Shown here: in pieces, positions 22,063 through 28,791 of the stretch
How the letters are laid out: each line of letters starts with the position of its first letter
How positions within the stretch are numbered: position 1 is the stretch's first letter
Source: Solirubrobacteraceae bacterium
GTDB taxonomy: Bacteria; Actinomycetota; Thermoleophilia; Solirubrobacterales; Solirubrobacteraceae
Length of the DNA: 48,844 nt
Direction: 5' to 3'
NCBI GenBank assembly: GCA_031177685.1
Contig: JAPSGI010000020.1
Coordinates: forward strand, 1 to 48,844
Notes under the pieces: model-generated
What the model saw: only the letters and a program-made list of their open reading frames with translations
Database searches by the model: none
Told to the model about the DNA's origin: nothing
Program-made: the position numbers and the translations under genes

Positions 22063-23508
22063 ATGAGCGGGAGCGCAGTTGCGGCCGCCGTGGGTGCGGG
22101 CGACGACATGGAGTTGGTCACCGCCGTCCGGCACGGCGACGATCGCGCGTTCGAGGAGCTCTACGCCCGCTACCACCCCAGGGTGAGCGCGTACGTGCGC
22201 GGCATGGTCAAGGACCACGCGCGCGCCGAGGACGTCACCCAGGACGTCTTCTTCTCCGCCCTGCGACGCATGCGCCAGACCGCGCGGCCGATCGCCTTCC
22301 GGCCATGGATCTACGAGATCGCGCGCAACGCCTGCATCGACGCCTACCGGCGCAGCAGCCGCGCCGAGGAGCTCTCCTACGACGCCGACGGCGGCCTGGC
22401 CCGCGCCGACTCCATGCGCCTGGTCAGCTGGCGCCCCGGCCCCGACGACGCGATCGAGCGCAAGCAGCAGCTCGACGACCTCTGCGGGGCGTTCGGCGGT
22501 CTCTCGCAGACGCACCACCAGATCCTCGTGCTGCGCGAGCTGGAGGGCCTGTCCTACCGCGAGATCGGCGACCGGCTGGGCATGAGCCGGGCCGCCGTGG
22601 AGAGCACGCTGTTCCGCGCGCGCCGCCGGCTGACCGAGGAGTACGACGAGCTGGTCAGCGGGCGCCGCTGCACGCGCGTCCAGGCGGTCCTGGCGGCCGC
22701 CGCCGAGGGGATGCTCGGCACGCGCGACCGCCGCAAGCTCGCCCGCCACCTCTCGACCTGCCAGGCCTGCCGGCGCCGGGCCCACCACCTCGGCGTGGAG
22801 CTCGGCGAGCGGCCCTCGCTCGCCGCGCGGATCGCCGGCTGGTTTCCGTTCCCGGTCCTGCTGTCGCGCGGCGGCGAGGCGTCCGCCGGCCTGAGCACGG
22901 GCGCCGAGCCGGTGGCCGCCGCCTGGGGCAAAGCGGTCGTGGCCGTGGCGGCCCTGGCGGTCGCGGGCGCCGGGGCGGGCGCCGTCTCGCAGACCGGCGT
23001 GCCCGCGCCGCGGCTGGCGGACGTGCCGGTGCTCGGGGCGCTCGCCGGCGAGGAGTCACCGCGCGCGCACCAGCCGATCTCCGCGCCGCCCGGAAGCCCG
23101 GGCTCGCTGCTGGCGAGCCCGGACGCGCTGGCGGCAGACCGCGTCTTCGACGGCGCGCGGGGCTCCGCGGGCAAGTCGCGCACGTCCGGCACGGCCAGGC
23201 GCGACGCGCAGTCCGCGCCGCCGGGCCAGGGTGCCACCGCCACGGGCATCTCCTCGTCCGCCTTGCCGGACGGCGCGCCGCGGGTCGCCGTGCCCGAGGT
23301 GGCCGGCGCGGGCACCCCTCCGCCCGCGGCGGCCGCGGGCGGCGACGCCGCCTCACCGGTGGCCGACGGCGCGAAGAGCGCGCTGCCCGCCGCCAACCCG
23401 CCGCTGCCCGCCGGCGACCCGGCTCCGGCGCCCGCCGCGGTGTCCGCGGCACCGCCGGTCGCCGCGGCCGCGGCCGCCGCGGTCGTTCCGCCGCCCGCGA
23501 CTGGCTGA
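22063..23508 (+). CDS. ECF sigma factor fused to a zinc anti-sigma module and a transmembrane segment
   Basis: A 481-aa protein. Sigma region 2 is at about 24-100 (DRAFEELYARYHPRVSAYVR, DVTQDVFFSALRRM, PWIYEIARNACIDAYRR). Region 4 is at about 135-190 (LRELEGLSYREIGDRLGMSR). A ZAS-type zinc motif follows: Cys203, then His229, Cys233, Cys236 (HLSTCQAC). One hydrophobic segment at about 291-308 leads to about 170 Ala/Pro/Gly-rich residues. The layout suggests a sigma factor held at the membrane by its own anti-sigma domain. ATG at 22063; the longer upstream frame is rejected. A second gene with the same plan is at 27269-28717. Confidence 0.9.
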   Translation: MSGSAVAAAVGAGDDMELVTAVRHGDDRAFEELYARYHPRVSAYVRGMVKDHARAEDVTQDVFFSALRRMRQTARPIAFRPWIYEIARNACIDAYRRSSRAEELSYDADGGLARADSMRLVSWRPGPDDAIERKQQLDDLCGAFGGLSQTHHQILVLRELEGLSYREIGDRLGMSRAAVESTLFRARRRLTEEYDELVSGRRCTRVQAVLAAAAEGMLGTRDRRKLARHLSTCQACRRRAHHLGVELGERPSLAARIAGWFPFPVLLSRGGEASAGLSTGAEPVAAAWGKAVVAVAALAVAGAGAGAVSQTGVPAPRLADVPVLGALAGEESPRAHQPISAPPGSPGSLLASPDALAADRVFDGARGSAGKSRTSGTARRDAQSAPPGQGATATGISSSALPDGAPRVAVPEVAGAGTPPPAAAAGGDAASPVADGAKSALPAANPPLPAGDPAPAPAAVSAAPPVAAAAAAAVVPPPATG

Positions 23509-26540: not shown

Positions 26541-27272
26541 ATGTCCGACGAGCTGCTCGCCCGTCACGGCGTCGCGCTCGTGCGCGCGCGCAATCCCGGA
26601 CCGTTCACGCTCGAGGGGAGCAACACCTGGGTCGTCGGGCGCGATCCCGCCTGGGTCGTGGACCCGGGCCCGGACCGCGCGGACCACGCGCGCGCGGTGG
26701 CGGACGAGGTGGGCCGGCGCGGAGGGCTGGGCGGGGTGGCGCTGACGCACGGCCACGGCGACCACGCGGGCGGCCTGTCCGCGCTGCTGGAGCTGGCCGG
26801 GGCGGCGCCGGTCGGCGCCCTGGAGGCCGGCGACACCGAGCTGCGCGACGGCGATCGGTTCGGGCCGTTCGTCGCGGTGGCGACGCCCGGCCACTCCCCC
26901 GACCACCTCGCCTTCGTGGCCGGCGCGGTCTGCTTCACCGGCGACGCCGTGCTCGGGCACGGCAGCGTGTTCGTGACCGCCGCGCTCGCCGGCTACCTGG
27001 ATGCGCTGCGCCGGCTGCGCGGCCTGCCGCTCGCGATCCTGTGCCCCGGACACGGCCCCGTCGTCGCCGACCCCGCGGCCAAGCTCGACGAGTACGTCGC
27101 GCACCGCCTGGAGCGCGAGCGTTGGCTGCTCGAGGCGCTGGCGCGGGGGCTCGAGGACGAGGACGACCTGCTCGACGCGGTCTGGGACGACGCCCCGCCA
27201 GCCCTGCGCGGCGCCGCGGCGATCACGCTGCGCGCCCACCTGCAGAAGCTGCGCGAGGAGGGACGGCTCTAG
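26541..27272 (+). CDS. Metallo-beta-lactamase-fold hydrolase (LACTB2-like)
   Basis: A 243-aa enzyme with the metal motif THGHGDHAGG (HxHxDH) near residue 70, TPGHSPDHLAFV (third metal His), FTGDAVLGHGS (bridging Asp) and CPGHGPVV (last His). A C-terminal winged-helix-like tail (AAAITLRAHLQKLREEGRL) is typical of LACTB2-type RNases and thioesterase relatives. Substrate unknown. The stop TAG overlaps the convergent sigma-fusion stop (CTAG). Confidence 0.92.
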   Translation: MSDELLARHGVALVRARNPGPFTLEGSNTWVVGRDPAWVVDPGPDRADHARAVADEVGRRGGLGGVALTHGHGDHAGGLSALLELAGAAPVGALEAGDTELRDGDRFGPFVAVATPGHSPDHLAFVAGAVCFTGDAVLGHGSVFVTAALAGYLDALRRLRGLPLAILCPGHGPVVADPAAKLDEYVAHRLERERWLLEALARGLEDEDDLLDAVWDDAPPALRGAAAITLRAHLQKLREEGRL

Positions 27273-28717
27273 CGGGGCTGGGTGGTGGAGCTGGTGCTGC
27301 CGCTCGACCCGGAGCCGGTGCTCGATCCGCTGGGAGCGGTGGAGCCCGAAGAGGTGCCGCTGGGGCGTTCCCCGCCGGTCGTGGTGCCGGTTCGCGTGGA
27401 GTCCAGCGGCGTGCTCACCGGCGGGACCAGGGTGTCGCGCGCCGGCGTGGCCGCCGGCGCCGGCGCCGGCGCGGGAGCCTCGTCGGGCGCCGCGAGGCCG
27501 CCGCTGCCGGCGGTGAACTCGTCGTCGCCGACGGCGGCATGGTCGCCGGCCGCGGGGGCGGTGGTCGCGGCGCCGTCCTTCGCGTCCACCGGCGTGACGG
27601 CCGGCGCGGGCGGAGTGAGCTTGACCGGAGCGTCCACCGCGTGCGACGCGGAGTCGCGCACCCCGACCGCCTTGACGGCCGGGACCGCCGCCGGCGCGGA
27701 CCTCGCGGTGGCCGCGGGCGGCGAGCCGTGCTCGACGATCGACTGCTCCACCTTCACGGCGCCGCCGCCGGCCACCACCACGGCGGAGACGACGGCCGCG
27801 ACCTTGGTGGCGCTGAGCGCCGCCGCGCCCGTGCCGGCGATCGTGCCGCCCGCTGCCGCGCCGCCGCCCGCGGCCATGCCGCCGCCGGCCGCCGCGCCGC
27901 CCGCGCCACCGCCGCCGAGCCCCAGCTTGGCGAGCAGCCCGAGCAGCCCCACCGGTGCCGGGGTCAGCGCCGCGAAGGAGCGCTGCATGTGGCGCAGATC
28001 GCTGCGGTACTGGCGGCAGCCGGCGCAGTCGCGCAGGTGCCGGCGCGCACGCCCCGTCGCCCGCACTCCGCGCCCGTGGGCCAGCGAGAGGTCGTGGCGT
28101 ATCTCGCGGCAGTCGACCTCGCGCGCGTCCGCCGCCTCGACCAGGCCCATCCGGGCCCGCACGAGCAGCGACTTGACGGCGGGCACGGTCACTTCGAGCG
28201 CCTCGGCCAGGTCGACGTAGGACAGGCCCTCCATCTCGCGCATCAACAGCACGGAGCGCTGCTGTTCGGGCAGCCGGCGCACGTCGGCGATCAATCGCTT
28301 GAGGTCCTCGCGGCGCTCGGCCTCGACGAGCGGGTCCGACAGCGGCGCGCGCGAGACGTCGAACACGTCGGCGACGGGCGGCAGCGGCCGGCGCAGCTGA
28401 TCGATGCAGCGGTTGTGCGCGACGCGGTACAGCCAGGCCTTCAGCGCGATCGGGCGGTCGGAGGCGCGCAGCGCCCCGTACGCGCGGACGAACACGTCCT
28501 GCAGCGCATCCTCGGCGTCCTGCCGCGAACCCGACAGCATCTGGCGCGCGTAGGAGAACAGCCGCTGGCTGTAGCGGTCGTGGATGACGCGGAACGCCTC
28601 GTCGTTGCCCGCCCGGAAGAGGGCGACCAGCTGATCGTCGGAGCGCAGCCGCAGGAGCGGCGCACTCAGCGAGATGCGCGCCAGCCCGACGGGGGCTTGG
28701 AGGGCTGAAGCTTCCAC
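27269..28717 (-). CDS. Second ECF sigma factor fused to a zinc anti-sigma module and a transmembrane segment
   Basis: A 482-aa protein from the GTG at 28717. Sigma region 2 is DDQLVALFRAGNDEAFRVIH ... ALKAWLYRVAHNRCIDQLRR, and region 4 is LMREMEGLSYVDLAEALEVT. The zinc motif is Cys203, His227, Cys231, Cys234 (HLRDCAGC). A Gly/Ala-rich stretch precedes one hydrophobic segment (KVAAVVSAVVVAGGGAV, about 305-321), and then comes a Pro/Thr/Ser-rich tail to the end. The plan and length match the gene at 22063. An in-frame ATG at 28783 is possible, but AAGG before the GTG and a TAGAGT box favour 28717. Confidence 0.9.
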   Translation of the reverse strand: MEASALQAPVGLARISLSAPLLRLRSDDQLVALFRAGNDEAFRVIHDRYSQRLFSYARQMLSGSRQDAEDALQDVFVRAYGALRASDRPIALKAWLYRVAHNRCIDQLRRPLPPVADVFDVSRAPLSDPLVEAERREDLKRLIADVRRLPEQQRSVLLMREMEGLSYVDLAEALEVTVPAVKSLLVRARMGLVEAADAREVDCREIRHDLSLAHGRGVRATGRARRHLRDCAGCRQYRSDLRHMQRSFAALTPAPVGLLGLLAKLGLGGGGAGGAAAGGGMAAGGGAAAGGTIAGTGAAALSATKVAAVVSAVVVAGGGAVKVEQSIVEHGSPPAATARSAPAAVPAVKAVGVRDSASHAVDAPVKLTPPAPAVTPVDAKDGAATTAPAAGDHAAVGDDEFTAGSGGLAAPDEAPAPAPAPAATPARDTLVPPVSTPLDSTRTGTTTGGERPSGTSSGSTAPSGSSTGSGSSGSTSSTTQPR

Positions 28718-28737: not shown

Positions 28738-28743
28738 ACTCTA
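28738..28743 (-). promoter_or_regulatory. -10 box of the second sigma-fusion gene
   Basis: TAGAGT on the minus strand predicts a start near 28731 and a leader of about 14 nt containing AAGG before the GTG at 28717. Confidence 0.35.
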
Positions 28744-28791
28744 ACCGCTGGCTCGGCCGGAAGTCGCGAAATTCGGGCATCATCGCGCCGC

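What the first reader, a model, noticed from the sequence alone, without database searches (positions are those of the whole stretch)
27269..28717. Second sigma/anti-sigma/TM fusion of the same length and plan 4 kb away
The protein has 482 aa against 481 and its zinc motif begins at the same residue number (Cys203), but its sigma region 4 and outer tail (Pro/Thr/Ser-rich, Gly-rich before the TM) are very different in sequence. Two tethered sigma factors in one 7-kb stretch suggest an expanded family, each with a different sensed signal or wall contact.
Basis: partly seen in the sequence, partly recalled or inferred. Interest (0 to 1): 0.7.

Follow-up and report, generated by a model that had tools for sequence, protein, structure and literature searches.

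The report
Sigma factor fused to its inhibitor
This soil bacterium carries several copies of a gene-switch protein (a sigma factor) joined in one chain to what looks like its own zinc-holding inhibitor and a long featureless tail; the design is known from other actinobacteria, but here it has multiplied, and two of the branches examined have their own private, apparently self-switching promoter.

Summary
On the minus strand at 27269-28717 (GTG start) lies a 482-aa ECF sigma factor with a fused anti-sigma-type zinc domain (C203, H227, C231, C234), a Gly-rich linker, a hydrophobic stretch and a Pro/Thr/Ser tail; the sibling at 22063-23508 has 481 aa and also Cys203. They belong to an expanded family: five zinc-fused copies plus one zinc-less in this genome, and members in all 21 related genomes searched. 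The two window copies are old paralogs, not a recent duplication. The plan is the ECF48/52/53 kind (Streptomyces SCO4117), but sigma phylogeny and the missing carbohydrate-binding domain keep it out of ECF52. Corrections: the 'TM' is only marginally hydrophobic in all 52 members measured, while most fused relatives in other classes have clear TMs; the tail is unconserved even among orthologs and carries no domain, so 'different sensed signal' is unsupported. New: clade-specific ECF promoters lie about 45-55 bp upstream of the start (AAC-N17-GTTA here; GCAACT-N8-GCTACGGTGTC in a second clade), almost absent elsewhere in these genomes, pointing to autoregulation with narrow, separate regulons.

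The parts
27269..28717 (-). ECF sigma / anti-sigma-type zinc domain fusion gene, 482 aa (GTG start, stop included)
   Evidence: orthologs 62-76% identical over residues 1-280 in nine family genomes
28388..28639 (-). sigma region 2 (about residues 27-110)
   Evidence: PF04542, E 3e-16; predicted helices 27-109
28118..28333 (-). sigma region 4 (about residues 129-200)
   Evidence: PF08281, E 4e-13; predicted helices 129-200
27923..28111 (-). anti-sigma-type zinc domain, residues 203-265: C203, H227-x3-C231-x2-C234, four predicted helices
   Evidence: ligands conserved; profile match to separately encoded anti-sigma proteins, hhalign probability 93.4, E 2.5e-7
27806..27922 (-). Gly/Ala-rich linker (about residues 266-304)
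   Evidence: pLDDT under 50
27743..27805 (-). marginally hydrophobic stretch KVAAVVSAVVVAGGGAVKVEQ (residues 305-325), putative weak membrane anchor
   Evidence: position conserved in orthologs; insertion energy +1.6, never under 0 in the family
27272..27742 (-). Pro/Thr/Ser/Ala-rich low-complexity tail without known domain (residues 326-482)
28738..28766 (-). predicted autoregulatory ECF promoter CGACTT-N15-GTTAGAGT, ending 20 nt before the GTG
   Evidence: conserved upstream of orthologs with fixed spacing; rare genome-wide
22063..23508 (+). sibling ZAS-fused sigma gene, 481 aa, member of a different clade

Best explanation
The gene encodes a one-protein ECF signalling unit. An ECF sigma factor (regions 2 and 4) is held inactive by an anti-sigma-type zinc (ZAS, class I) domain fused directly behind region 4. 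Shown: domain anatomy, conserved zinc ligands, homology of the fused domain to separately encoded anti-sigma partners, vertical conservation as an ortholog group, and a conserved ECF-type promoter at its own start. Inferred: (a) the zinc domain inhibits the sigma in cis; (b) the hydrophobic stretch anchors the protein weakly to the membrane with the tail outside; (c) a signal acts on the tail or the zinc domain, and proteolysis or unfolding frees the sigma; (d) the freed sigma drives its own promoter, giving positive feedback, and few other genes. Other paralogs would run in parallel with different -10 elements and so little cross-talk.
For: Sigma domains and PDB matches to sigma-E, AlgU and SigW structures. 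Invariant C203/H227/C231/C234 with four predicted helices. In other genomes of the phylum the family profile runs across a stop codon: sigma positions 23-199 in one ORF and ZAS positions 199-254 in the next, the latter with its own H-x3-C-x2-C (L263, L264, L266, L267, L268, L271); profile-profile match E 2.5e-7. Promoter: AAC-N17-GTTA in 9 of 18 ortholog upstream regions (most others one or two bases off with the same spacing), site score 12 or more of 15 in 8 of 18 against a shuffle maximum of 11. CAACTT-N15-GTTA occurs only 10 times in 21 genomes, 2 of them within 60 bp upstream of this gene's orthologs. For the second clade's promoter all three perfect matches in 21 genomes lie just upstream of that clade's sigma genes. 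Literature precedent: SCO4117 positive autoregulation and proposed excision (PMC5826349), IutY cleaved by Prc/RseP (PMC8999054). Two M50 proteases in the genome, though such proteases are universal.
Against: No direct evidence for inhibition, membrane location or cleavage. The hydrophobic stretch is marginal in all 52 members measured. The AlphaFold model has pTM 0.42, so packing of the zinc domain on the sigma is not resolved. The predicted promoter in this genome has CGACTT in place of CAACTT, and the genome-wide scan found no convincing second target. Two close sisters of this clade lack the whole extension, so the extension is dispensable in some lineages.
Confidence: 0.7

Rival explanations
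1. The anchor has been lost in this lineage: the protein is a soluble sigma/zinc-domain fusion whose zinc domain works as a cytoplasmic redox or metal switch (RsrA/ChrR-like), and the tail is a disordered cytoplasmic extension.
For: Insertion energies all positive in 52 members, median +1.5, while 11 of 15 fused proteins of other classes, including the NPCBM (ECF52-like) ones, are below 0; tail unconserved.
Against: The hydrophobic stretch keeps its place and charged boundaries among orthologs; Pro/Thr/Ser-rich tails of 200-300 residues are typical of wall-spanning segments (general knowledge); the energy scale was recalled and is approximate.
Confidence: 0.25
2. The fused zinc domain is not inhibitory but a structural or activating module, and activity is set only by transcription of the gene.
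For: Sisters without the extension exist, ZAS-less paralogs with tails exist (L094, L131), and a conserved own promoter suggests transcriptional control.
Against: Zinc ligands are conserved across deep divergence and the domain is homologous to adjacent anti-sigma genes elsewhere.
Confidence: 0.12
3. It is a plain member of ECF52 (SCO4117 group).
For: Same order of modules: sigma, ZAS, Gly-rich linker, hydrophobic segment, Pro-rich tail.
Against: No NPCBM or other carbohydrate-binding domain; in the sigma tree the NPCBM proteins L258/L259 sit apart with L260 (100/99), and this family groups with Thermoleophilia sequences (86/79).
Confidence: 0.05

Closest known systems
ECF52 (SCO4117 of Streptomyces coelicolor)
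   Same: Sigma domain, zf-HC2-type zinc domain, hydrophobic segment and Pro-rich tail in one chain; evidence of positive autoregulation published for SCO4117 (PMC5826349)
   Different: No C-terminal carbohydrate-binding domain, weaker hydrophobic segment, different sigma clade, many paralogs per genome instead of one
ECF48 and ECF53 (actinobacterial ECFs with C-terminal ZAS and one or two TM helices; PMC8999054)
   Same: Same plan; a tandem pair that looks ECF48-like (L241) was recovered with the family profile
   Different: L241 has clear TM helices and lies in another sigma clade; group models could not be run here
IutY (ECF243) of Pseudomonas putida
   Same: Sigma and anti-sigma in one protein; the only case where proteolytic release was shown experimentally (PMC8999054)
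   Different: Cell-surface signalling system of another phylum; no sequence comparison made here
Class I (ZAS) anti-sigma factors such as RsiW, RsrA, ChrR
   Same: H-x3-C-x2-C motif with upstream Cys; best though insignificant PDB sequence hit is RsiW (E 0.4)
   Different: Normally a separate protein encoded next to the sigma gene

Membership tests
ECF (group 4) sigma factor | Sigma regions 2 and 4 only | tested here: met
   PF04542 and PF08281 above cut-off, no region 3 found
Class I anti-sigma (ZAS) domain | Upstream C/H and H-x3-C-x2-C zinc motif in a small helical domain | tested here: met
   Ligands conserved; helices 203-265
Class I anti-sigma (ZAS) domain | Homology to separately encoded anti-sigma factors | tested here: met
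   hhalign probability 93.4, E 2.5e-7; split sigma/ZAS gene pairs; zf-HC2 Pfam cut-off itself not reached by the query
Class I anti-sigma (ZAS) domain | Inhibits its sigma factor | not testable with these tools
   Needs a reporter or binding assay
ECF48/52/53-type fusion | Sigma + ZAS + one or two transmembrane helices in one chain | tested here: inconclusive
   Sigma and ZAS met; TM marginal (+1.6; family +0.45 to +2.7)
ECF52 | C-terminal carbohydrate-binding domain | tested here: not met
   No NPCBM in 16 members, present in L258/L259
ECF52 | Sigma domain groups with ECF52 | tested here: not met
   Separate clades; L258/L259 taken as ECF52 by architecture, not by name
ECF48/ECF53 | Match to the published group models | not tested
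   Models not available here

The most novel reading that the evidence does not exclude
A class-wide, lineage-specific expansion of self-inhibited, self-transcribing sigma factors: paralogs share one -35 element (GCAACTT) but have evolved different -10 elements and spacers, so that each copy is an isolated positive-feedback switch with almost no other targets, and the membrane anchor has been weakened or lost.
Probability: 0.3. Interest if true: 0.6.

Novelty: new variant of a known kind. Interest (0 to 1): 0.45.

Why it matters
Fused sigma/anti-sigma proteins are known but hardly studied, with SCO4117 and IutY the main worked cases. Here are many paralogs in one class with conserved, clade-specific promoters, which makes promoter discrimination between sister sigma factors and inhibition within one chain directly testable, and offers self-contained switches for synthetic biology. 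It also shows that the 'membrane-tethered' label does not transfer automatically across the fused ECFs.

Tried and rejected
Recent tandem duplication of the two window genes: rejected, they fall in different supported clades and are 34.5% identical in region 4. The 504-aa start (ATG 28783): rejected, it lies upstream of the conserved promoter and of the conserved GTG start. The 555-aa plus-strand ORF overlapping the gene: treated as a high-GC shadow ORF. A broad regulon from the promoter motif: scans gave the own promoter plus hits resembling a repeated coding motif (CAACTTCGG..GTCGT..; reading as coding is inference) and chance-level hits. Sisters L109/L111 as split sigma/anti-sigma pairs: rejected, no ZAS gene follows them. 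Two searches of relatives with the full-length protein failed on the server and were replaced by a search with residues 1-280. The structure was used only for secondary structure because pTM is 0.42.

Full report
What is there. The reading frame at 27269-28717 is on the minus strand, starts at GTG 28717 and encodes 482 residues. Sigma region 2 and region 4 are found by Pfam; the zinc motif is C203, H227, C231, C234. The sibling at 22063-23508 has 481 residues and also has Cys203. Codon-position GC shows that both the domains and the low-complexity tail are translated. The window belongs to a 3.15-Mb draft genome, and the named orthologs place it in Solirubrobacteraceae/Solirubrobacterales of the Thermoleophilia (for example Conexibacter sp. 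CPCC 206217, 68% identity).

A family. A search of the own genome with the protein gives, besides the query, four ZAS-fused relatives (C13, C17, C27 and the sibling on C16) and one with a tail but no zinc motif (C2). All 21 genomes searched (own plus 20 relatives of the order) have members, with orthologs of 62-76% identity over residues 1-280 in nine genomes of the family; a complete 4.4-Mb genome has 11-13 hits. Over a class-wide sample 97 of 149 genomes match at 1e-30 or better, though at that level some hits are sigma domains only. In a tree of 91 sigma domains the query sits in a 17-row clade (100/97), the sibling in a 7-row clade (100/100), and C13 in a 28-row clade (100/99) that is the most widespread. 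The two window genes are thus old paralogs.

The fused zinc domain is an anti-sigma domain by homology. C203, H227, C231 and C234 are invariant over 29 orthologs and paralogs. AlphaFold2 gives confident helices at 203-251 and a less confident one at 256-265 behind region 4, but the relative placement of the domains is not reliable (pTM 0.42). In other genomes of the phylum the same profile crosses a stop codon: the sigma half lies in one ORF and the zinc half in the next, the second with its own H-x3-C-x2-C and, in L264, L267, L268 and L271, a further hydrophobic segment and C-terminal domain. Profile-profile comparison of the fused and the separate zinc domains gives E 2.5e-7. Sequence search of solved structures with the zinc domain alone gives only RsiW at an insignificant E 0.4.

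The membrane anchor is doubtful. After the zinc domain come a Gly/Ala-rich linker and a conserved stretch of the form K-V-A-A-V-V-x-x-A-A-V-V-G-G-G-A-V. Using a biological insertion scale recalled from memory, all 52 family members measured lie between +0.45 and +2.7 kcal/mol (median +1.5). Of 15 fused proteins of other actinobacterial classes, 11 lie below 0, including the NPCBM-bearing ones (-0.7 and -0.9); a hydrophobic segment of another protein of the same genome scores -3.6. The stretch is often more hydrophobic than shuffles of the tail, so it is probably selected for something, but a stable TM helix is not shown.

No sensor is visible. The tail is unalignable between orthologs, and a Pfam scan of 16 members finds nothing beyond sigma, zinc-finger and helix-turn-helix models and two weak Collagen-repeat matches. 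The idea that each tail senses a different signal has no support here.

A private promoter. Upstream of 18 orthologs a site of the form GCAACTT-N15-GTTAGAGT recurs, mostly 45-55 bp before the start, with fixed spacing in nearly all; AAC-N17-GTTA is the commonest dyad (9 of 18; maximum over 20 shuffled sets 7), and 8 of 18 sites score 12 or more of 15 against a shuffle maximum of 11. In the window it reads CGACTT-N15-GTTAGAGT at 28738-28766 on the minus strand. The strict core site occurs only 10 times in 21 genomes, about the level of its reversed control, and two of the ten are ortholog promoters. The second clade has the same -35 but another -10 and spacing (GCAACT-N8-GCTACGGTGTC; AAC-N15-GTGT in 16 of 28, shuffled maximum 9); its three perfect matches in 21 genomes all lie at that clade's own genes. 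For the sibling's clade and the C27 clade no such site stood out, and for C17 only a weak one. The simplest reading is ECF autoregulation with narrow regulons.

Known kind, new variant. A review lists ECF48, ECF52 and ECF53 as actinobacterial ECFs with a C-terminal ZAS and TM, expected to be released by proteolysis, with IutY as the only proven case (PMC8999054); SCO4117 (ECF52) is the studied member (PMC5826349). Membership of ECF52 is therefore rejected; ECF48/53 membership could not be tested. No paper in the searched library was found that describes this family in Thermoleophilia, which is weak evidence because many papers are not held.

Neighbourhood. A GH15 glycosidase gene (divergent) and an MBL-fold hydrolase gene (convergent) recur within a few kb in many but not all orthologous loci, supporting orthology; whether they are targets is unknown.

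Noticed in passing
G000:C17:17423-33224 (loci L009, L010, L013, L019, L022, L024): A cluster of about five other ECF-like sigma genes within 16 kb next to one ZAS-fused copy, sharing an N-terminal extension and lacking the zinc domain.
   Followed up: no
L244:945-2597: In another actinobacterial genome an ECF sigma factor, zinc motif, clear TM and two PASTA domains are in one reading frame, suggesting direct sensing of peptidoglycan by a sigma factor.
   Followed up: partly
L243:1224-2882: Sigma + zinc motif + TM + BACON_2-like domain in one reading frame.
   Followed up: partly
L131 (G015:C3:190300-199000) and L094 (own C2:68578): Zinc-less sigma-plus-tail paralogs; in L131 three copies in tandem.
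   Followed up: partly
L241:1767-4769: Two tandem sigma-ZAS-TM-Pro-rich genes in a large actinobacterial genome, perhaps ECF48.
   Followed up: partly
L109, L111: Close sisters of this clade that lack the whole C-terminal extension and have no separate anti-sigma gene directly downstream.
   Followed up: yes
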